A DNA stretch of 64,000 nucleotides from Clostridiaceae bacterium BL-3 (GTDB taxonomy: Bacteria; Bacillota; Clostridia; Clostridiales; Clostridiaceae), in contig CADDXC010000001.1 in NCBI GenBank assembly GCA_902809985.1, positions 2,914,001 through 2,978,000 on the forward strand, in the 5' to 3' direction. Below are positions 770 through 33,324 of this stretch, piece after piece. The translations under genes and the position numbers were made by a program. Position 1 is the first letter of the stretch. Each line of letters begins with the position of its first letter. The notes under the pieces are model-generated. The model saw nothing but the letters and a program-made list of their open reading frames with translations, ran no database searches and was not told the DNA's origin.

Positions 770-1495
770 ATGAGTTATGAAAATTTAAAATCTGCTGTAG
801 ACAATAGTAATAACATTGTATTTTTAGGAGGTGCGGGAGTTTCTACAGAATCAAATATACCTGATTTTAGATCCGAAGCAGGCCTTTACAAAACTAAAAA
901 TAATTTTTCATATCCTCCTGAAGTAATGTTAAGTCATTCATTTTTTATGTCTCATACTGAAGACTTTTTCGAATTTTACAGAAAAAAAATGATATATAAA
1001 GATGCAAAGCCCAACGACGCACATTATGCTCTAGCTGAATTAGAAAAGCAAGGAAAATTAAAAACCATAGTAACTCAAAATATAGACGGCCTTCATCAAA
1101 TGGCCGGATCAAAGAATGTCTTGGAGCTGCACGGTTCAATCCATCGAAATTACTGTACCAAATGCAATAAGTTTTTTGATCTGGATTATATAATAAATAG
1201 TCCTGATACCATACCTAAATGTGATAAATGTAACGGACTGGTAAAACCTGATGTAGTCTTATATGAGGAAAGCTTAGACATGGATGTATTGAATAAATCC
1301 GTTAAATACATAAGTCAAGCTGATATCCTAATTGTAGGTGGAACATCCCTGGTAGTATACCCTGCTGCAGGATTAATTAATTATTTTAAAGGCAAAAAAC
1401 TCGTTCTTATAAATAAATCATCTACTCCTTATGATAACAGAGCTGATATAGTTATACATGATAAAATAGGTACAGTTTTAAAAAGTGTTTTATAA
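770..1495 (+). CDS. NAD-dependent protein deacylase, sirtuin (Sir2/CobB/SrtN family)
   Basis: A 241-residue bacterial sirtuin, which removes acyl groups from protein lysines using NAD+. The sequence shows the NAD-binding GAGVSTESNIPDFRS motif (about residues 22-36), TQNIDGLH (about 104-111), the catalytic histidine in ELHGS, and a structural zinc site made of two CxxC pairs (CTKC and CDKC). GTSLVVYPAA near residue 192 is the second NAD-binding motif. The ribosome binding site is GAGGTGA, spaced well from ATG 770. Length is normal for the family. It is transcribed alone, with a promoter at 740-750 and a terminator just after the stop. Confidence 0.95.
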   Translation: MSYENLKSAVDNSNNIVFLGGAGVSTESNIPDFRSEAGLYKTKNNFSYPPEVMLSHSFFMSHTEDFFEFYRKKMIYKDAKPNDAHYALAELEKQGKLKTIVTQNIDGLHQMAGSKNVLELHGSIHRNYCTKCNKFFDLDYIINSPDTIPKCDKCNGLVKPDVVLYEESLDMDVLNKSVKYISQADILIVGGTSLVVYPAAGLINYFKGKKLVLINKSSTPYDNRADIVIHDKIGTVLKSVL

Positions 1496-1535
1496 GAATA
1501 ATATAAACAAGACTGTCTCAGGAAATTACCCGGAA

Positions 1536-1574
1536 AGTAAAAAATACCTGGATTTGCATAAATCAAATCCAGGC
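1536..1574 (-). terminator. terminator of the parvulin gene (hairpin shared with sirtuin 3' end)
   Basis: The arms CCTGGATTTG (1547-1556) and CAAATCCAGG (1564-1573) form a perfect 10-bp stem with a 7-nt loop. On the minus strand the stem is followed by TATTTTTTAC, a good U-tract for the gene at 1588-2331. On the plus strand it is followed only by CATTTTC, which may also help stop the sirtuin transcript. Confidence 0.85.
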
Positions 1575-1587
1575 ATTTTCCCCAGTG

Positions 1588-2331
1588 CTATTTAAGTTCC
1601 ACCTCATATTTACTTTTCAAACCTTCAGTAAATTGACTATACTTAAAAGCCTGTCTTTCCTGTAATAGCCCTCTCCTAATTGCATCCTTAACCTCAGCAA
1701 AAGTTTTTATTGAAGCCTCTTCCTTATTTTCAACTTTTATAAGGTGATATCCAAATTGGGTTTTTACAGGCTGACTTACTACTCCTATCTCTAGCTGAAA
1801 AGCTGTATTTTCAAATTCAGGTACCATTTGTCCCCTTGTAAATTTTCCAAGGTTTCCTCCTTGTGCTTTTGATGGACACGAAGAGTATTTTTTAGCAGCA
1901 TCTTCAAAAGATAACCCGGTTTTTACCTTTTCTAATACTTCATTTGCTTTTTCAAGGGAATCCACCAGTATGTGTCTTGCTGTTATATTTTCGGGATTTT
2001 TATACATGTTTCTATTAGCTTTATAGTAATCTTCAACTTCCTTATCTGTGACCTTGACATCTTCCAGAATCTTATCTACTGCCACTTGAGTCATCATTTC
2101 TTTTTTTACGGCTTCTAATTTAGCTAAATAACTCTCGCTACTTTCCATGTGTTCATCTTTAGCATAATTATAAATGAGTTCAAAAGATATTATTTCATTT
2201 AACAATTGTTTCCTACCATTTTCAGTTTCCAAGTACCGCTGTCTTTCTGCTGGAAATCTTCTTATCGTATTTTGCAGATCCTGTTCTGTTATTTCCATTC
2301 CATTGACAACTGCCAACACATTATTTTGCAT
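1588..2331 (-). CDS. cytoplasmic parvulin-type peptidyl-prolyl isomerase
   Basis: A 247-residue protein with an N-terminal helical SurA/PrsA-like region and a parvulin PPIase domain (about residues 100-215: ITARHILVDS, GGNLGKFTRGQMVPEFE, GYHLIKVENK). It probably catalyses cis-trans isomerisation of prolyl bonds. Unlike the PrsA lipoprotein at 56995-58020 it has no signal peptide or lipobox, so a cytoplasmic location is inferred. The start is placed at ATG 2331 because AAGGAG lies 7-8 bases ahead of it; a longer in-frame start at 2367 has no ribosome binding site. A single-gene transcript is likely. Confidence 0.9.
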   Translation of the reverse strand: MQNNVLAVVNGMEITEQDLQNTIRRFPAERQRYLETENGRKQLLNEIISFELIYNYAKDEHMESSESYLAKLEAVKKEMMTQVAVDKILEDVKVTDKEVEDYYKANRNMYKNPENITARHILVDSLEKANEVLEKVKTGLSFEDAAKKYSSCPSKAQGGNLGKFTRGQMVPEFENTAFQLEIGVVSQPVKTQFGYHLIKVENKEEASIKTFAEVKDAIRRGLLQERQAFKYSQFTEGLKSKYEVELK

Positions 2332-2399
2332 ATATTTTCTCCTTAACATTATTATATTTATTATCAATTATGACATAATTCCCACATTTTTTCTATATA

Positions 2400-2431
2400 A
2401 AAATTAAAAGTTCCAGATAAACTCTGAAACT
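2400..2431 (-). terminator. terminator downstream of rRNA operon 1 and tRNA-Phe
   Basis: On the minus strand AGTTTCAGA pairs with TCTGGAACT (nine pairs including one G-T) around a 5-nt loop, followed by TTTAATTTTTATA. It lies two bases beyond the tRNA-Phe CCA end. Confidence 0.8.
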
Positions 2432-2433
2432 TC

Positions 2434-2509
<76 letters not shown>

Positions 2510-2522
2510 ATATATGTATTTA

Positions 2523-2638
2523 TCTGGCGACGACCTGCTCTCCCACAGGGCCTCCCCTGCAGTACCATGGGCACTGTGAAGCTTAACCTTCCTGTTCGAA
2601 ATGGTAAGGGGTGTTGCCTTCACGTTATTGCCACCAGA
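2523..2638 (-). rRNA. rrf: 5S rRNA, operon 1
   Basis: About 116 nt whose ends pair (TCTGGTGGC at the 5' end, GCCAGA at the 3' end). It contains the conserved CATTTCGAACAGGAAGG and GTGGGAGAGCAGGTCG segments of 5S rRNA. An identical copy lies 25,289 bp further on. Ends are placed by the terminal stem and may be off by one or two bases. Confidence 0.95.
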
Positions 2639-2649
2639 TATTTTTACCG

Positions 2650-2767
2650 AAAATTACTACTAACTTCGCATTCCTTCGTCAAGTCTTTCGCTGCGGTGCT
2701 CACTTACATGAGTAAGCTCTGCTCCTCACTCGAGTCTTTCCTTGAACTGCTCGCTATTATCAATTTT
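2650..2767 (-). repeat. rRNA-spacer palindromic repeat, copy R1
   Basis: This 118-bp element sits in the 23S-5S spacer. It starts AAAATTACTACTAACTTCG and ends CTCGCTATTATCAATTTT on the plus strand, so the ends are inverted repeats of each other. The interior carries the family core GCGGTGCTCACTTACATGAG. See R2-R7 for the other copies. Confidence 0.8.
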
Positions 2768-2845
2768 CTTGACATATTACCTTATTATTACCAAAGGTAT
2801 AAATCACTACTCCTCAGCTTCAGCTGAGTGAGTTTAGAGAACCCT

Positions 2846-2872
2846 GTTCTCTCAAAATTGCACAGTAAATAT
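2846..2872 (-). other. 3' arm of the 23S pre-rRNA processing stem, operon 1
   Basis: This segment is complementary to 6319-6345 at 25 of 27 positions. The two arms bracket the whole 23S gene, as expected for the RNase III processing stem. The identical arm of operon 2 is at 28135-28161. Confidence 0.8.
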
Positions 2873-2891
2873 CCCATCCATGTCTTCTTTT

Positions 2892-5785
<2,894 letters not shown>

Positions 5786-5794
5786 TTTGCTTCG

Positions 5795-5912
5795 AAAATT
5801 ACCATCAGCTTCACAATATTTCGTCAAAACTCTCTTTCCGGTGCTCATTTACATAAGTAAACTCCGCTCCTCTATCGAGTCTTTCCTTGTCTTGTTCGCT
5901 GCTGCCAATTTT
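5795..5912 (-). repeat. rRNA-spacer palindromic repeat, copy R2
   Basis: A 118-bp copy in the 16S-23S spacer, beginning ten bases beyond the 23S 5' end. It starts AAAATTACCATCAGCTTC and ends TTCGCTGCTGCCAATTTT. Its core is more diverged than those of R1 and R3. Confidence 0.8.
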
Positions 5913-5928
5913 CTATTACTCTGATTGA

Positions 5929-6046
5929 AAAATTGCTACTAACTTTGCATTTCATCGTCAAGTCTTTCGCTGCGGTGCTCACTTACATAAGTAAGCTCTG
6001 CTCCTCCCTCAAGCCTTTCCTCGAACTGCTCGTTACTGCCAATTTT
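5929..6046 (-). repeat. rRNA-spacer palindromic repeat, copy R3
   Basis: A 118-bp copy in the 16S-23S spacer. It starts AAAATTGCTACTAACTTTG and ends CTCGTTACTGCCAATTTT. Its core is very close to that of R1, suggesting recent copying or conversion between them. Confidence 0.8.
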
Positions 6047-6143
6047 CTATTACTTAGTTATAAATCTTACCTTAAATGTTTTTTTAACTTCAATCTTAGT
6101 TATAACTTGCTTTACTACAAAGGTTATTTCTAACCTTAGCTCT

Positions 6144-6262
6144 AAAATTACCATTAGCTTCCTACAGCTGCGTCAAATGCCTCACTGCGGTGCTCATTTA
6201 CACTAAGTAAACTCCGCTCCTCCTTTGGCCTTTTCCTTGCTGTACTCGCTGCTGCCAATTTT
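6144..6262 (-). repeat. rRNA-spacer palindromic repeat, copy R4
   Basis: A 119-bp copy in the 16S-23S spacer. It starts AAAATTACCATTAGCTTCC and ends CTCGCTGCTGCCAATTTT. It is separated from R3 by about 97 bp of AT-rich DNA with no gene. Confidence 0.8.
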
Positions 6263-6268
6263 AGCTTT

Positions 6269-6311
6269 AAAATTGCCACTAACTTCGTATAAACATACTC
6301 GTTACTGCCAA
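6269..6311 (-). repeat. rRNA-spacer repeat, internally deleted copy R5
   Basis: Only the two ends of the repeat remain: AAAATTGCCACTAACTTCG followed after a short gap by CTCGTTACTGCCAA. This 43-bp relic supports the view that the inverted-repeat ends define the element. Confidence 0.7.
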
Positions 6312-6318
6312 CTCTATT

Positions 6319-6345
6319 ATATTTACTGTGCAATTTTCAAAGAAC
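6319..6345 (-). other. 5' arm of the 23S pre-rRNA processing stem, operon 1
   Basis: Complementary to 2846-2872 at 25 of 27 positions. It lies outside copies R2-R5, so those copies are inside the excised precursor stem. The operon 2 counterpart is 31608-31634. Confidence 0.8.
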
Positions 6346-6433
6346 AAATTTCTTTCAATCTGCAGTGTTTAATTCACACTGCACAATTGGGTGAAGAATT
6401 CAACTGTCAATTCTTGATTGTCAACTGACTTCT

Positions 6434-6453
6434 GATCCTTCAAAATTAAACAG
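6434..6453 (-). other. 3' arm of the 16S pre-rRNA processing stem, operon 1
   Basis: Complementary to 8403-8422 at 18 of 20 positions, so the pair brackets the 16S gene as an RNase III-type processing stem. The operon 2 counterpart is 31723-31742. Confidence 0.8.
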
Positions 6454-6521
6454 AATAAACGGATACTTACATAAGACAAACCTTTTAAGAAAGCCTTTCT
6501 CAGGCTCCCTTTCGACTCCCT

Positions 6522-8035
<1,514 letters not shown>

Positions 8036-16513: not shown

Positions 16514-16698
16514 TACCTCACTCCTCCACAAAGATATCTGGAAACAATTTATCACACATTAATTAGACAATTTTAATATATAAAAAGTTACACTTAATAT
16601 CAATTATTAAGTTAATAAAAGTTCTAAATAAAAAAATAAATTACCATGATCTTACGATAATTTATTCTAAAATCGAGTTTATTTTTTTAAAAATGTGT

Positions 16699-16704
16699 TA
16701 AAAT
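16699..16704 (+). promoter_or_regulatory. extended -10 promoter of the orphan small RNA
   Basis: TAAAAT preceded by TGT aligns exactly with the TGA-TATAAT element of the homologous small RNA at 20122-20208. No clear -35 is seen. Confidence 0.4.
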
Positions 16705-16710
16705 ATAATT

Positions 16711-16791
16711 AAAAGAAGCCATTGCGGCTTTATTATTGAATTGGATTTTCAGTTAATTAAATGCACTCTCGCAAAGTGCATTTAATTTTTT
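16711..16791 (+). ncRNA. candidate antitoxin-like small RNA, copy 1
   Basis: An 81-nt non-coding segment with a promoter at 16699-16704 and a strong terminator (AATTAAATGCACT at 16755-16767 pairing with AGTGCATTTAATT at 16775-16787, then TTTTTT). It contains a 5' hairpin AAGCC-ATTGC-GGCTT. It is clearly homologous, in order and sequence, to the minus-strand RNA at 20122-20208; the hairpin stems differ by paired changes. It converges on the PH-domain gene at 16858-17274. Expression has not been shown. Confidence 0.6.
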
Positions 16792-16857
16792 GAGCTTTTA
16801 TTTTAGTCTTTTTCCAAAATAAAAAGGTGATCATGCCTTTTTATAATAAATAAAATT

Positions 16858-17274
16858 TTAAATTTGTGAAGCAATTCGCTTGTTGAGTACATCAATAAAT
16901 TCCTGTTTTTTATCTGGAGAAATTAATATAGAATCACAGAAAGAATTTTTATAATATTTAATTTCTAATCTATCCATAGATAACGCTGGAGAAGATATTA
17001 TGTTATTACTCTCTTTAAATGAAATAATATCTCCATAATTAATCTTAATATTTAATATTAGCCCACTTCTTATATATAAATATGAATCTTCAAAAACATA
17101 ATAAGTAAGAAAATATCTTGGTAAAATAAATAATATTAATAAAGAAATGAATAAAATAAATGCTAAAGATCCTATTTTATTTATAATATATAAATAAAAC
17201 AACCATAAAGTTATAATTGTAAATAATACTACTGTAATATGAAACCACCAACCAATTTTCGAATTAAATTTCAT
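16858..17274 (-). CDS. PH-like-domain membrane protein, unknown function
   Basis: A 138-residue protein with two closely spaced membrane segments (about residues 12-30 and 34-52), then a cytoplasmic domain (YVFEDSYLYIRSGLILN... MDRLEIKYYKN... LISPDKKQEFIDVL) with the pattern of bacterial PH-like (bPH) domains. Function is unknown. GGAAGGG lies seven bases before the ATG. Upstream on the same strand is a degenerate copy of the leader seen before the 61-residue protein at 19950, and downstream lies a convergent small RNA, so it occupies the payload position of a second cassette. Confidence 0.7.
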   Translation of the reverse strand: MKFNSKIGWWFHITVVLFTIITLWLFYLYIINKIGSLAFILFISLLILFILPRYFLTYYVFEDSYLYIRSGLILNIKINYGDIISFKESNNIISSPALSMDRLEIKYYKNSFCDSILISPDKKQEFIDVLNKRIASQI

Positions 17275-17309
17275 CCTTATACCCTTCCATAAAATTTATC
17301 GATTTTCAA

Positions 17310-17412
17310 TAACCGATCTCTGTTATCAATTAGCCATAAATACCCTCTTTGCAAGAGATAAAATCTGGAGAGTGGCCAATTAAAAAACTTTATTTTCTTA
17401 ATAGATATTATA
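17310..17412 (-). promoter_or_regulatory. degenerate cassette leader with -10 element
   Basis: TATAAT (17412-17407, preceded by TGA) is followed on the minus strand by a segment that aligns with 19852-19945. Shared blocks include CTCCAG, ATTTTATCTCT and ATAACAGAG against CAACAGAGG. The AGGAG binding site and ATG of the leader peptide found in the other copy are destroyed here (AAGAA and GTT), so no leader peptide is expected. Confidence 0.5.
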
Positions 17413-18539: not shown

Positions 18540-19705
18540 CTATATAGAAAGTAAAAATGGTTCAAAGCTTTATACAAAGTCTGTCAATAACCTCTGAGTT
18601 GGATAAATTGATACGTTTAATAAACTCTCTGACAGCTGTCCTTATTTCTTTTACTGTGGGATAAAATACATTATTTATAATGTCAGATTTAAGCCACTTC
18701 CACAGACCTTCAATAAGGTTAAGCTGTGGGCTGTATGGTGGAAGAAATACAAGTTTCAATCGAGGGGTTGCCTCCATAAATGGCTGTATAAGTTTTGCGT
18801 GGTGAATACGAGAATTATCCAGGATCATTACTATCTTTCCAGAAGGATACTGCTGTACAATTTCCTTTAGAAATTTAAGAAATACTTCAGCATCATACTT
18901 TTCGTCTTCACTGCAATATACTTGTCCAGTTTCATAGTTTAATACACCTAAAAGTTTACTCCCCTATGCTTACCAGTAGTAGGAATAATGCGCTGTCTGC
19001 CTTTTATAAACCATGTTTTTGCTATGGCCTGGTAATCCCGAATCATTGATTCATCCTCAAAAAGAATATAATCTATATGACCTTTCATTAATTTTTTTTT
19101 AAAAGTTCAAACTGGTCTTTGAATTCTTTTTGTCTTGATTCATCAGCTTTTTTCAAAGAATACGTCGGCCGGGTGAAACTTAAATTATTTCTGTATAATA
19201 CTTCAAGCATTCCTCTTTGACAGTAGGAAACACCATAAAGTTTCATTACCAGCTTCCTTATTATCGTAGTATCCCACTTTTTCCTCGCAGTAAAGCCTTC
19301 TTCATCGGGGGTTCTGGTTGTAATTATTTTAATTAGTTCTAATTCCTGGGCATTGGTTAGATGACGGGGAGCTCCCGGGCTTTTGCCAATAACCAGACCA
19401 CTTAATCCAGACGATTTATATTTTTTAACATATACACCTACAGTTTGAAAAGATATATTGTTCATATAGGCAATCTCGTTAAGCTTGTATCCCTGGAGAT
19501 AGTTAAGTATAACAATATATCTTATATGCATTCTCTTATTTGAGTTATTTTTCAGTGCCTGATTGACTTCTTCAAAATCTGATTTTTCAGCATAATAATT
19601 TATTCTATCATGTACTTTTTTCATTCCTGTCCACAATCCTATAGTCAGAATTATTATATTTTTATAATTCCACATTAGTGGACAAACTTCAGAACACTCT
19701 ATTTA
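18540..19705 (-). mobile_element. IS630-family insertion sequence, copy A (inactivated)
   Basis: The element starts at CTATATAGAAAG (18540), a border shared with the truncated copy B, and extends to about 19705. The right end is uncertain because I could not match clear terminal inverted repeats; ATAGAAAGT at one end and ATAGAGTGT at the other are only a weak match. It carries one transposase gene on the minus strand, broken by two frameshifts. Confidence 0.65.
18562..19624 (-). pseudogene. IS630-family transposase, two frameshifts
   Basis: The N-terminal part (19624-19088) has the helix-turn-helix region LNEIAYMNNISFQTVGVYVK. The frame breaks in a run of nine A at about 19090, continues with HIDYILFEDESMIRDYQA (first DDE aspartate), breaks again near 18960 where one base is missing, and finishes with MILDNSRIHH (second aspartate) and PYSPQLNLIEGLWKWLK (glutamate). 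All three DDE motifs survive, so inactivation seems recent. The A-run alone could be a programmed frameshift, but the second break cannot. Confidence 0.8.
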
Positions 19706-19732
19706 TAAAAATATCCCAGCAATAAGAAACAA

Positions 19733-19760
19733 GCCCCGGGTTAAATCAATAACTCGGGGC
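19733..19760 (-). terminator. GC-rich hairpin terminator
   Basis: GCCCCGGGTT and AACTCGGGGC form a 10-bp stem with one G-T pair. The minus strand continues into TTGTTTCTTATT. It lies between the IS element and the toxin-like cassette and would insulate one from the other. Confidence 0.6.
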
Positions 19761-19834
19761 AATAATTAATTCTGTGCTTAACTACAAGGTAGAATATGGA
19801 TAAACTTTATAAATATAGATTCGTGGTTAAAATT

Positions 19835-19845
19835 TATGCTATAAT
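19835..19845 (+). promoter_or_regulatory. extended -10 promoter of the 61-residue protein cassette
   Basis: TATGC-TATAAT ends at 19845, an extended -10 element. No strong -35 is seen. The predicted transcript starts near 19852, just before the leader ORF. Confidence 0.55.
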
Positions 19846-19864
19846 AATTATCAGGAGAATAAGG

Positions 19865-19924
19865 ATGTTTTTAGTTAGTCACCCTCCAGGATTTTATCTC
19901 TCCCATGGAAGTCGTTACGGTTAA
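19865..19924 (+). CDS. 19-residue leader peptide ORF
   Basis: ATG 19865 is preceded by AGGAG at a good distance and opens a 19-codon frame, MFLVSHPPGFYLSHGSRYG, ending at TAA 19922-19924. It lies 25 bp before the 61-residue protein gene. The second copy of the cassette keeps the surrounding bases but has lost this start and binding site. Such an ORF could couple translation or form part of a control element. It is an inference that it is translated. Confidence 0.45.
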   Translation: MFLVSHPPGFYLSHGSRYG

Positions 19925-19949
19925 TCCGACAACAGAGGGGGTGACATAA

Positions 19950-20135
19950 ATGAGTGATTCTATTACTATTACATCTATAGTATGCGTTACAATAGTGAGT
20001 ATAGTTGGTATTTTTGCTATGCTTGCATACTTAAAAGAAAGAGCCATTCTTAAATATAAGAACAGCTCTAAACACAGTAATAATGAAATATCTATTACTG
20101 CGGATAGTTATAAAGAAAATAACTTAAAAAATTAA
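19950..20135 (+). CDS. 61-residue single-span membrane protein, candidate type I toxin
   Basis: The protein has one hydrophobic segment (about residues 5-27) followed by a basic, polar tail (LKERAILKYKNSSKHSN). A strong GAGGGGGTGA site precedes ATG 19950. Its stop codon lies inside the stem of the hairpin at 20130-20165, and a convergent small RNA (20122-20208) overlaps its 3' end. Size, topology and antisense arrangement resemble type I toxins of Firmicutes, though I cannot assign it to a named family. It is flanked on both sides by IS630 sequence, so horizontal transfer is plausible. Confidence 0.6.
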   Translation: MSDSITITSIVCVTIVSIVGIFAMLAYLKERAILKYKNSSKHSNNEISITADSYKENNLKN

Positions 20136-20208
20136 AATGCACCCTAGCGTAAGTGCATTTTAATTAACTAATAACATTTAACAATCAAAAACCGTAACGG
20201 CTTCTTTT
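20122..20208 (-). ncRNA. candidate antitoxin-like small RNA, copy 2
   Basis: A minus-strand segment of about 87 nt running from an extended -10 promoter (20220-20215) to a terminator. It starts with a hairpin AAGCCG-TTA-CGGTTT and ends with the 13-bp hairpin at 20130-20165 followed by TTTTTT. Its last part is antisense to the 3' end of the 61-residue protein gene. It is homologous to the plus-strand RNA at 16711-16791. Type I antitoxin activity is inferred from layout only. Confidence 0.6.
20130..20165. terminator. shared convergent terminator of the cassette
   Basis: AATTAAAATGCAC (20130-20142) pairs perfectly with GTGCATTTTAATT (20153-20165). The minus strand continues into TTTTTTAAG, a strong stop for the small RNA. 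The plus-strand tail (AACTAATAAC) is poor, so the mRNA may read through. Confidence 0.75.
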
Positions 20209-20214
20209 AAATAT

Positions 20215-20220
20215 ATTATA
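20215..20220 (-). promoter_or_regulatory. extended -10 promoter of small RNA copy 2
   Basis: On the minus strand TGA-TATAAT, with transcription expected from about 20208. The -35 region is not recognisable. Confidence 0.45.
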
Positions 20221-20306
20221 TCACAATTTATTATTTTAAATCATATTTTGTGGTATTAATTTTATTTATCTTTAAAAATTATACTAAAATTTTAAAAAAT
20301 ATATTA

Positions 20307-20644
20307 CTATATAGAAAGTAAAAATGGTTCAAAGCTTTATACAAAGTCTGTCAATAACCTCTGAGTTGGATAAATTGATACGTTTAATAAACTCTCTGAC
20401 AGCTGTCCTTATTTCTTTTACTGTGGGATAAAATACATTATTTATAATGTTAGATTTAAGCCACTTCCACAGACCTTCAATAAGGTTAAGCTGTGGACTG
20501 TATGGTGGAAGAAATACAAGTTTCAATCGGGGGGTTGCCTCCATAAATGGCTGTATAAGTTTTACGTGGTGAATACGAGAATTATTCAGGATCATTACTA
20601 TCTTTCCAGAAGGATACTGCTGTACAATTTCCTTTAGAAATTTA
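20307..20644 (-). mobile_element. IS630-family fragment, copy B (truncated)
   Basis: This 338-bp stretch repeats 18540-18877 of copy A (shift 1,767 bp) with several scattered base changes. It contains only the transposase C-terminus, including PYSPQLNLIEGLWKWLK. The second catalytic aspartate is changed (MILNNSRIHH instead of MILDNS). The homology stops abruptly at 20644. It cannot move by itself. Confidence 0.85.
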
Positions 20645-27725: not shown

Positions 27726-27801
27726 TGGTGGCTCACCGGGGAATCGAACCCCGGACAACATGATTAAAAGTCATGTGCTCTACCAACTGAGCTAGTGAAC
27801 C
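27726..27801 (-). tRNA. tRNA-Lys (TTT)
   Basis: A 76-nt cloverleaf on the minus strand with acceptor arms GGTTCAC and GTGAGCC, anticodon loop CTTTTAA with anticodon TTT, T-arm GTTCGATTC and an encoded CCA. It lies 10 bp after the second 5S gene and is likely cotranscribed with operon 2. Confidence 0.97.
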
Positions 27802-27811
27802 ATAAAATTTA

Positions 27812-27927
27812 CCTGGCGACGACCTGCTCTCCCACAGGGCCTCCCCTGCAGTACCATGGGCACTGTGAAGCTTAACCTTCCTGTTCGAAATGGTAAGGGG
27901 TGTTGCCTTCACGTTATTGCCACCAGA
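27812..27927 (-). rRNA. rrf: 5S rRNA, operon 2
   Basis: Same sequence as 2523-2638 except the last base, where the duplication begins. All conserved 5S segments are present. Confidence 0.95.
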
Positions 27928-27938
27928 TATTTTTACCG

Positions 27939-28056
27939 AAAATTACTACTAACTTCGCATTCCTTCGTCAAGTCTTTCGCTGCGGTGCTCACTTACATGA
28001 GTAAGCTCTGCTCCTCACTCGAGTCTTTCCTTGAACTGCTCGCTATTATCAATTTT
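27939..28056 (-). repeat. rRNA-spacer repeat R1, operon 2
   Basis: Same sequence as 2650-2767, in the 23S-5S spacer of operon 2. Confidence 0.8.
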
Positions 28057-28134
28057 CTTGACATATTACCTTATTATTACCAAAGGTATAAATCACTACT
28101 CCTCAGCTTCAGCTGAGTGAGTTTAGAGAACCCT

Positions 28135-28161
28135 GTTCTCTCAAAATTGCACAGTAAATAT
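28135..28161 (-). other. 3' arm of the 23S processing stem, operon 2
   Basis: Same sequence as 2846-2872; pairs with 31608-31634 at 25 of 27 positions. Confidence 0.8.
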
Positions 28162-28180
28162 CCCATCCATGTCTTCTTTT

Positions 28181-31074
<2,894 letters not shown>

Positions 31075-31083
31075 TTTGCTTCG

Positions 31084-31201
31084 AAAATTACCATCAGCTT
31101 CACAATATTTCGTCAAAACTCTCTTTCCGGTGCTCATTTACATAAGTAAACTCCGCTCCTCTATCGAGTCTTTCCTTGTCTTGTTCGCTGCTGCCAATTT
31201 T
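31084..31201 (-). repeat. rRNA-spacer repeat R2, operon 2
   Basis: Same sequence as 5795-5912. Confidence 0.8.
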
Positions 31202-31217
31202 CTATTACTCTGATTGA

Positions 31218-31335
31218 AAAATTGCTACTAACTTTGCATTTCATCGTCAAGTCTTTCGCTGCGGTGCTCACTTACATAAGTAAGCTCTGCTCCTCCCTCA
31301 AGCCTTTCCTCGAACTGCTCGTTACTGCCAATTTT
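31218..31335 (-). repeat. rRNA-spacer repeat R3, operon 2
   Basis: Same sequence as 5929-6046. Confidence 0.8.
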
Positions 31336-31432
31336 CTATTACTTAGTTATAAATCTTACCTTAAATGTTTTTTTAACTTCAATCTTAGTTATAACTTGCT
31401 TTACTACAAAGGTTATTTCTAACCTTAGCTCT

Positions 31433-31551
31433 AAAATTACCATTAGCTTCCTACAGCTGCGTCAAATGCCTCACTGCGGTGCTCATTTACACTAAGTAAA
31501 CTCCGCTCCTCCTTTGGCCTTTTCCTTGCTGTACTCGCTGCTGCCAATTTT
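31433..31551 (-). repeat. rRNA-spacer repeat R4, operon 2
   Basis: Same sequence as 6144-6262. Confidence 0.8.
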
Positions 31552-31557
31552 AGCTTT

Positions 31558-31600
31558 AAAATTGCCACTAACTTCGTATAAACATACTCGTTACTGCCAA
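31558..31600 (-). repeat. rRNA-spacer repeat R5 (deleted copy), operon 2
   Basis: Same sequence as 6269-6311; only the two inverted-repeat ends remain. Confidence 0.7.
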
Positions 31601-31607
31601 CTCTATT

Positions 31608-31634
31608 ATATTTACTGTGCAATTTTCAAAGAAC
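31608..31634 (-). other. 5' arm of the 23S processing stem, operon 2
   Basis: Same sequence as 6319-6345; pairs with 28135-28161. Confidence 0.8.
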
Positions 31635-31722
31635 AAATTTCTTTCAATCTGCAGTGTTTAATTCACACTGCACAATTGGGTGAAGAATTCAACTGTCAAT
31701 TCTTGATTGTCAACTGACTTCT

Positions 31723-31742
31723 GATCCTTCAAAATTAAACAG
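31723..31742 (-). other. 3' arm of the 16S processing stem, operon 2
   Basis: Same sequence as 6434-6453; pairs with 33692-33711. Confidence 0.8.
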
Positions 31743-31810
31743 AATAAACGGATACTTACATAAGACAAACCTTTTAAGAAAGCCTTTCTCAGGCTCCCTT
31801 TCGACTCCCT

Positions 31811-33324
<1,514 letters not shown>

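What the first reader, a model, noticed from the sequence alone, without database searches (positions are those of the whole stretch)
19835..20220. Candidate type I toxin-antitoxin locus: 61-residue membrane protein with convergent small RNA
A short single-span membrane protein with a basic tail is preceded by an extended -10 promoter and a strong Shine-Dalgarno site. A minus-strand RNA of about 87 nt with its own promoter converges on it, sharing a perfect 13-bp terminator stem that contains the toxin stop codon. The 5' leader has GAAGTCGTTACGGTT, and the same sequence with one change (GAAGCCGTTACGGTT) occurs on the minus strand at the 5' end of the small RNA; the core CCGTTACGG is nearly self-complementary, so the two RNAs could kiss, or the mRNA ends could fold together. 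The layout matches known type I systems but I cannot match the protein to a named family.
Basis: partly seen in the sequence, partly recalled or inferred. Interest (0 to 1): 0.82.

Follow-up and report, generated by a model that had tools for sequence, protein, structure and literature searches.

The report
Clostridial toxin-like gene, leader-mimic antisense RNA
A family of small clostridial membrane-protein genes, probably self-poisoning toxins held in check by an antisense RNA, has messages whose two ends are conserved to pair with each other, which suggests that the tail of the message helps decide whether the protein is made.

Summary
The locus is real and belongs to a multicopy family: 4 full copies plus fragments in the host genome. 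I compared 27 loci (7 genomes of the genus; one has a broken ORF) and 13 distant loci (9 genomes, 6 other genera). Layout: extended -10, structured leader, single-span membrane protein of about 55-70 residues, a hairpin that suits ending of the minus-strand RNA, and a convergent antisense RNA.

The leader instead complements the plus-strand sequence opposite the sRNA, in two segments. Both pairings are locus-specific (0/20000 permutations in each set), and the 15-bp helix persists where its sequence has changed completely. At fixed positions, non-Watson-Crick pairs are 62 G.U against 3 A.C, which points to one plus-strand RNA that spans both ends. The Shine-Dalgarno (SD) site lies in a covarying stem.

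Best reading: a type I toxin-antitoxin-like family with a 5'-3' long-distance interaction; the sRNA copies the leader's pairing segments and so takes the mRNA's 3' strands. Whether that interaction opens or locks the SD is inferred. Transcripts and toxicity are untested.

The parts
19837..19845 (+). extended -10 (TGCTATAAT) of the toxin-like gene; mRNA start about 19852 (estimated)
   Evidence: sequence; TGnTATAAT in 25 of 27 genus loci and a TGnTATAAT-like element in 9 of 13 distant loci
19854..19864 (+). P0 5' strand at the mRNA 5' end
   Evidence: pairs with 19892-19903; cognate above non-cognate 2/20000 (27 loci) and 0/20000 (13 distant)
19863..19877 (+). seg1: leader strand of long-distance helix 1, abuts the anti-SD
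   Evidence: cognate duplex -9.07 v -7.61 kcal/mol, 0/20000 permutations; 13 distant loci 20.8 v 15.2, 0/20000
19878..19886 (+). anti-SD strand of the SD-sequestering stem
   Evidence: 99.2% of cells paired in 27 loci, 2 pairs with changes on both sides
19892..19903 (+). P0 3' strand in mid-leader
19908..19922 (+). seg2: leader strand of long-distance helix 2
   Evidence: 15 pairs with 20190-20204, 99.0% of cells paired in 27 loci, 3 pairs with changes on both sides
19937..19945 (+). Shine-Dalgarno, 3' strand of the sequestering stem
19950..20135 (+). 61-aa single-span membrane protein, toxin-like (toxicity not tested)
   Evidence: hydropathy; ORF intact in 26 of 27 genus loci
20130..20165 (.). 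hairpin with the stop codon; suits termination of the minus-strand RNA better than of the mRNA
   Evidence: T in the 12 nt after the stem core: minus 9.4, plus 6.3, minus above plus in 26 of 27
20165..20178 (+). seg1': 3' strand of long-distance helix 1, if the mRNA reads through
20190..20204 (+). seg2': 3' strand of long-distance helix 2, if the mRNA reads through
20122..20208 (-). predicted antisense RNA; its 5' segment and middle resemble the leader's pairing segments
   Evidence: promoter and terminator anatomy; loop and middle hypervariable between close copies
20215..20223 (-). extended -10 (TGATATAAT) of the antisense RNA
   Evidence: TGnTATAAT-like in 27 of 27 genus loci and 11 of 13 distant loci

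Best explanation
The locus is one copy of a type I toxin-antitoxin-like family. A plus-strand mRNA encodes a small single-span membrane protein. Its SD is closed by a 9-bp stem in the leader. The mRNA is inferred to run past the hairpin so that its 3' end pairs back on the leader in two places: seg1 just below the SD stem and seg2 in that stem's loop. A convergent antisense RNA starts opposite seg2' and covers seg1' and the hairpin. It is therefore complementary to both 3' strands and looks like the leader. By binding the 3' end it removes the mRNA's ability to pair its two ends and, as in other Gram-positive type I systems, would also expose the mRNA to RNase III. My preferred sign for the long-distance interaction is activating: it competes with the SD stem, so the sRNA keeps the SD closed. 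Shown by comparison: the helices, their locus specificity, the covariation and the G.U strand bias. Inferred: read-through, the sign, RNase III, and toxicity.
For: Helix 2: 99.0% of cells paired in 27 loci with 3 doubly changed pairs. With the 3' partners of all three counted helices slid by 1-3 columns, paired cells fall from 98.3% to 44-51%. Cognate above non-cognate, 0/20000, for both segments in the genus and in 13 distant loci. Distant leaders and 3' sides have changed together (L116, L122, L148, L149, L154). At fixed positions in the genus: 335 Watson-Crick, 62 G.U, 3 A.C, 5 other; this favours pairing within a plus-strand RNA over a DNA repeat, a protein site or minus-strand pairing. 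SD stem 99.2% paired, with covariation. Nested folding: mean P(SD stem) 0.89 in the short form, 0.32 with the native 3' tail, 0.87 with shuffled tails; lower than the shuffled control by more than 0.2 in 19 of 27 loci, higher in none. The hairpin is followed by fewer T on the plus strand. Among 35 pairs of loci with ORFs at least 88% identical, the antisense loop (0.57) and middle (0.61) diverge more than ORF (0.93), leader (0.86) and sRNA promoter (0.88), as expected if paralogous antitoxins must not cross-react. Precedent: SR4 binds the 3' side of bsrG mRNA and extends SD sequestration from 4 to 8 bp (PMC6562991, PMC7430163; passages).
Against: No transcript data, no toxicity data, and no mapped mRNA 3' end. 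The folding result excludes pseudoknots, so it forces the SD stem and helix 2 to compete; if they coexist the SD stays closed. Even in that model the mean SD unpaired probability rises only from 0.02 to 0.27. In distant loci the 3' tail changes little in L147, L148, L150 and L151, and the SD stem itself is weakly predicted in L112, L146 and L149. Helix 2 beats the SD stem in only 16 of 27 loci. Cognate pairing is best in its row for 10 of 13 and in its column for 9 of 13 distant loci, and the non-cognate maximum is 40. The first version of that test, on gapped duplex energies, gave best-of-row in 7 of 13. In L146 the best seg1 match lies away from the homologous place. P0 is weak in L148 and L149. 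Permutations do not correct for relatedness. Distant segments were chosen as best local matches with G.U scored above mismatch, so their 25 G.U to 3 A.C is biased. dN/dS is not uniformly low: median 0.56 over 276 of 325 pairs.
Confidence: 0.6

Rival explanations
1. Hok/AapA-like lock: the long mRNA is silent because its 3' end clamps the leader; trimming back to the hairpin removes seg1' and seg2' and frees the message, while the sRNA marks long mRNA for decay.
For: In aapA1 a 5'-3' long-distance interaction keeps the full-length mRNA inactive until 3' processing (PMC8167048, passage); processing of inactive toxin mRNAs is described as classical in Gram-negative bacteria (PMC11228461, abstract and Discussion). 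Helix 1 ends within -2 to +5 nt of the SD stem in 12 of 13 distant loci, as coaxial locking would predict.
Against: Trimming would remove nearly all of the sRNA's target, whereas antitoxins in the described two-step systems target the processed mRNA. The SD stem alone already closes the short form (mean P 0.89).
Confidence: 0.25
2. The repeat lets sRNA and leader kiss directly.
For: Near-palindromic core in the window copy; about -12 kcal/mol in 14 of 27 loci; weak cognate signal, 381/20000.
Against: -4.3 to -9.5 kcal/mol in the other 13; no signal for the second segment (9907/20000); 20.3 v 19.8 in distant loci.
Confidence: 0.03
3. The inverted repeats are kept at the DNA level (templated repair or gene conversion between arms) or as sites for a DNA- or RNA-binding protein.
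For: Arms are inverted repeats in DNA; leaders and ORFs look mosaic among copies (L021 and L025 share a 3' middle but carry different protein types).
Against: The strand bias of mismatches, 62 G.U against 3 A.C at fixed positions, has no reason to exist at the DNA level; a protein site would not follow locus-specific complete sequence changes.
Confidence: 0.05
4. The protein is not a toxin but a regulatory small membrane protein whose dose is tuned by the antisense RNA and the mRNA structure.
For: Toxicity is untested; the tail is not strongly basic (net charge after the best hydrophobic stretch 0 to +6); two relatives (L152, L153) show no such leader or sRNA (by eye).
Against: Copy number, decayed copies and tight control are typical of type I toxins (recalled; several loci per genome also in the review PMC6563280, sections 2 and 3).
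Confidence: 0.2

Closest known systems
bsrG/SR4 of Bacillus subtilis (passages of PMC6562991 and PMC7430163)
   Same: The RNAs meet at their 3' ends; antitoxin binds the 3' side of the toxin mRNA, including the 3' part of helix P1; SD held in a stem; antitoxin binding strengthens SD sequestration.
   Different: No sequence comparison with bsrG was made; here two long-distance helices in pseudoknot order, a 9-bp SD stem (4 to 8 bp in bsrG), a shorter predicted sRNA (about 87 nt v 180 nt), many paralogues.
CD2517.1-RCd8 and related Clostridioides difficile type I systems (review PMC6563280, sections 2 and 3)
   Same: Small membrane proteins with overlapping convergent antisense RNA in a clostridium; several loci per genome.
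   Different: Sequences were not compared here. In the review they are linked to prophages and CRISPR arrays; the queries I used found nothing in phage records and, in plasmids, only 12 short Borreliella matches.
aapA1/isoA1 of Helicobacter pylori, and hok/sok (aapA1: passage of PMC8167048; hok partly recalled)
   Same: 5'-3' long-distance interaction in a type I toxin mRNA that involves the SD region.
   Different: There the long form is silent and the antitoxin meets the processed form; here the sRNA covers the 3' strands themselves.
timPR of enterobacteria (PMC11228461, abstract, start of the introduction, and Discussion)
   Same: Strong SD stem, a pseudoknot that controls translation, sRNA binding that destabilises it without mRNA processing.
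   Different: In timP the pseudoknot is inside the 5' UTR; here leader and 3' end are joined.
par/Fst of Enterococcus (recalled; PMC7472228 seen in a search listing only)
   Same: Convergent small RNAs around a small membrane toxin gene.
   Different: As recalled, par uses direct repeats that make the RNAs complementary; here the repeats are inverted and no direct-repeat family was found in 19680-20330.

Membership tests
type I toxin-antitoxin system | small hydrophobic protein with one membrane span | tested here: met
   Best 19-residue hydropathy 1.96-3.06 in the 26 ORFs translated; 1 of 27 loci had no ORF by the script. Hydropathy only, no topology program.
type I toxin-antitoxin system | the protein is toxic when expressed without its antitoxin | not testable with these tools
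   No experiment possible
type I toxin-antitoxin system | antisense RNA antitoxin transcribed over the toxin mRNA | tested here: inconclusive
   Promoter-like element in 27 of 27 and 11 of 13 loci and terminator-like site in the window copy; transcription itself not seen
type I toxin-antitoxin system | antitoxin acts by base-pairing with the mRNA | not testable with these tools
   Complementarity is given by the layout; hypervariable loop and middle fit specificity but do not prove it
hok/aapA-type long-distance control | conserved 5'-3' pairing within the toxin mRNA | tested here: met
   for the complementarity; presence in one transcript is inferred from the G.U bias
hok/aapA-type long-distance control | long form inactive, 3' processing activates | not testable with these tools
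   Folding in a nested model points the other way but excludes pseudoknots
bsrG/SR4-type control | binding of the 3' end by the antitoxin strengthens SD sequestration | tested here: inconclusive
   Model only: mean P(SD stem) 0.32 with the native tail, 0.89 without it
par/Fst | direct repeats shared by the two RNAs (recalled) | tested here: not met
   0 direct-repeat families in 19680-20330; the repeat is inverted
any named protein family in Pfam or NCBIfam | score above the curated cut-off | tested here: not met
   Window protein in both libraries; 13 members in NCBIfam gave only weak matches, best E 0.011
any Rfam family | gathering score | tested here: not met
   No hit over the locus in the window scan; permissive scan best E 0.99, below gathering

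The most novel reading that the evidence does not exclude
The antitoxin RNA is a mimic of the toxin mRNA's own leader. The mRNA's 3' end is a built-in translation activator that invades the leader at seg1 and seg2 and opens the SD; the sRNA silences by occupying that 3' end in the leader's place. The recognition parts of the sRNA diversify between paralogues so that many such switches can work side by side in one cell.
Probability: 0.38. Interest if true: 0.8.

Novelty: new variant of a known kind. Interest (0 to 1): 0.62.

Why it matters
Processing of inactive toxin mRNAs is described for Gram-negative type I systems; the timPR authors name Gram-positive systems only as candidates for control by refolding (PMC11228461, Discussion). 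Here covariation over several genera predicts a leader-3' interaction in a clostridial family, with matched natural variants ready for testing. The family has many paralogues in some genomes (14 protein matches in G011), with antisense recognition regions that differ far more than the genes, which makes orthogonality of antisense switches directly testable. In six searches of the held paper library I saw no description of this family in the listings; papers outside the library, including two likely relevant ones, were not seen.

Tried and rejected
Kissing of sRNA and leader: see the rival list. Upstream ORF in the leader (ATGTTTTTAGTT...): rejected as a family feature by eye, because several leaders lack a start codon there (for example L004, L012, L013, L023, L045). 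Known RNA or protein family; PADLOC gave one weak match for 1 of 13 members (E 0.0022), not pursued. Mobile vehicle: phage and plasmid DNA and protein searches gave nothing of use. Wider spread: at E 1e-7 in a sample of 391 genomes of the class, only 4 genomes matched, all of the host genus. Leader-only loci were first taken for a second RNA class; several proved to be leaders followed by the end of an IS110-family element. The first multi-copy alignments had three copies on the wrong strand and were discarded; one search replaced them.

Rows dropped before counts. The 27 genus loci were picked by eye from the loci fetched for having leader, gene region and sRNA end. Left out were loci without a leader (L014-L016, L024, L027, L029, L035, L042, L049; also L056), leader-only or truncated ones (L006, L026, L028, L047, L048, L050-L055), L005 (no sRNA end), L007 (sRNA end only in that search), and short AT-rich matches (L008, L018-L020, L030, L031). 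The 13 distant loci are those with all parts among 24 fetched (15, 9). The 11 left out are L113, L114, L115, L118, L120, L121, L123, L124, L125 (broken, decayed or leader only; some of these are from the host genus) and L152, L153 (protein without a recognisable leader or sRNA, judged by eye).

Full report
WHAT IS THERE. The finding's coordinates and elements are correct. The locus sits between pieces of IS630-family transposase genes (18562-19675 and 20329-20595, minus strand; families for the first stretch, the second by likeness of its translation). Reading the plus strand: extended -10 19837-19845; leader about 19852-19949; ORF 19950-20135; hairpin 20130-20165; then the region opposite the sRNA, up to its extended -10 at 20223-20215.

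FAMILY. A DNA search of the host genome gave 9 matches, of which 4 are full copies, 3 are fragments and 2 are short AT-rich stretches. All 13 genomes of the genus gave a match, but some only short AT-rich ones. The genus includes C. tyrobutyricum: the genome-contig scan found one locus, on a 133270-base contig of that species, and a contig of that length is in genome G012. That G002 is C. kluyveri is recalled from its chromosome size. I worked with 27 loci from 7 genomes (G000 4, G002 4, G003 3, G004 1, G007 3, G011 10, G012 2). A leader covariance model hit 17 of 206 genomes of the family, in 4 of 46 genera. A protein profile hit 38 of 204, in 13 of 46 genera, many of them weakly. From these I used 13 distant loci in 9 genomes of 6 other genera.

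PROTEIN. 26 of the 27 genus loci have an intact ORF of 59-66 residues by the script; L044 has none. Types differ in the membrane span but most share a C-terminal NEISIT-like motif. Selection: median dN/dS 0.56 over 276 of 325 pairs with dS 0.1-1.2; of the 40 pairs with lowest dS listed, 25 are below 0.5 and 15 at or above, up to 1.38. That fits purifying selection between close copies, but it is not a clean result. For the window locus no family in Pfam, NCBIfam or Rfam reached its cut-off.

LEADER. The SD stem is paired in 99.2% of cells with two pairs changed on both sides; RNAalifold found it independently. In 13 distant loci a matching stem of 9-13 positions is found by local alignment. 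A further helix, P0, joins the mRNA 5' end to mid-leader (cognate against non-cognate 18.5 v 17.0, 2/20000; distant 18.9 v 14.0, 0/20000; weak in L148 and L149). P0 crosses the SD stem, so the two form either a pseudoknot or alternative folds.

THE REPEAT. Equivalently, the plus strand opposite the sRNA complements the leader. In 27 loci seg2 has 14-15 of 15 pairs and 99.0% of cells paired, with three pairs changed on both sides. For the counted structure as a whole (SD stem, seg2 and hairpin together), sliding the 3' partners drops pairing from 98.3% to 44-51%. Seg1 is shorter and its 3' partner shifts in position. Both segments are cognate-specific (0/20000 each). In distant loci seg2 pairs over 12-20 alignment positions at the homologous place in 13 of 13, with scores 25-42 against a non-cognate mean of 22.0 and a shuffled mean of 19.6; the cognate is best in its row for 10 of 13 and in its column for 9 of 13. 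Seg1 gives 20.8 against 15.2 (0/20000) and ends within -2 to +5 nt of the anti-SD in 12 of 13; in L146 the best match lies elsewhere. Examples of complete co-change are L122 (AGAAGCTGTTGAGAG with its exact complement), L148 and L154. These permutations do not model relatedness; the distant co-changes are the stronger argument.

WHICH STRAND. If only similarity or a DNA repeat were kept, mismatches should fall as often into A.C as into G.U. At fixed positions in 27 loci there are 62 G.U (8 helix positions), 3 A.C (2 positions) and 5 others among 405 cells. So the pairing selected for is between plus-strand RNA segments. The cells are not independent, and the distant count, 25 to 3, is biased by the alignment scores, so I do not lean on it. 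The simplest molecule that holds both segments is an mRNA that reads through the hairpin. The hairpin is followed by more T on the minus strand (9.4 v 6.3 of 12; 26 of 27 loci), and the terminator scan called minus-strand sites only. Read-through is an inference.

HOW IT MAY WORK. In a nested folding model the native 3' tail lowers mean P(SD stem) from 0.89 (short form) to 0.32; shuffled tails give 0.87. It is lower than the shuffled control by more than 0.2 in 19 of 27 loci and higher in none. Helix 2 is favoured over the SD stem in 16 of 27 (median difference -1.2 kcal/mol), so the two are nearly balanced. In distant loci the means are 0.72, 0.31 and 0.68, with little change in L147, L148, L150 and L151. 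Against this: the model cannot hold pseudoknots, SD bases are unpaired only 27% of the time in the long form, and the abutment of helix 1 on the SD stem would also suit a lock. I prefer activation because the sRNA covers the two 3' strands, so binding would close the switch, as SR4 does in bsrG. In a Hok-like scheme the trimmed mRNA would lose most of the sRNA's target. The sign is open.

SPECIFICITY. Among 35 pairs of loci with ORFs at least 88% identical, mean identities are ORF 0.93, leader 0.86, 3' segment opposite the sRNA 5' end 0.94, sRNA promoter 0.88, but hairpin loop 0.57 and middle 0.61. Either the recognition parts diversify, or genes and leaders are homogenised while the middles are not; L021 and L025 share a middle but carry different protein types, so exchange does occur. 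The pairs are not independent.

PLACE AMONG KNOWN SYSTEMS. Convergent layout and sRNA over the 3' end put it with Gram-positive type I systems (review PMC6563280, sections 2 and 3; passages of PMC6562991 and PMC7430163). A conserved 5'-3' interaction recalls aapA1 (passage), and a translation-controlling pseudoknot recalls timPR. It passes the anatomical tests for a type I system; the defining functional tests (toxicity, transcription of the sRNA, antisense action) could not be run.

Noticed in passing
L059 (about 1491-3240), L058; also L064-L067, L073, L074, L078, L088, L089: An IS110-family element (PF01548, PF02371) splits the leader between CAGCAGAG and the SD. Of 15 loci with its end examined, 9 follow this leader or a decayed form of it (some judged by eye), 4 follow other sites ending in GAG, and 2 hold only an inner piece. 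IS110 elements are RNA-guided (recalled), so a guide aimed at this leader is possible.
   Followed up: partly
window 16690-17400, minus strand: A decayed second copy: leader-like match 17306-17400, IS110-end-like scar by eye, a bacterial PH-domain gene 16858-17274, and the hairpin and sRNA end 16690-16804.
   Followed up: partly
L021 and L025: Same 3' middle beside different protein types: the gene seems to have been exchanged next to a kept antisense region.
   Followed up: no
L152, L153: Close relatives of the protein without a recognisable leader or sRNA (by eye); how they are controlled is unknown.
   Followed up: no
L118, L114, L123: Leaders of this family followed by unrelated or displaced sequence.
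   Followed up: no
window 2437-8033 and 27729-33322, minus strand: Two rRNA operons with a tRNA behind each, in the same orientation, about 25 kb apart.
   Followed up: no
window 18562-19675 and 20329-20595, minus strand: IS630-family transposase pieces flank the locus; the first copy is split into separate reading frames.
   Followed up: no
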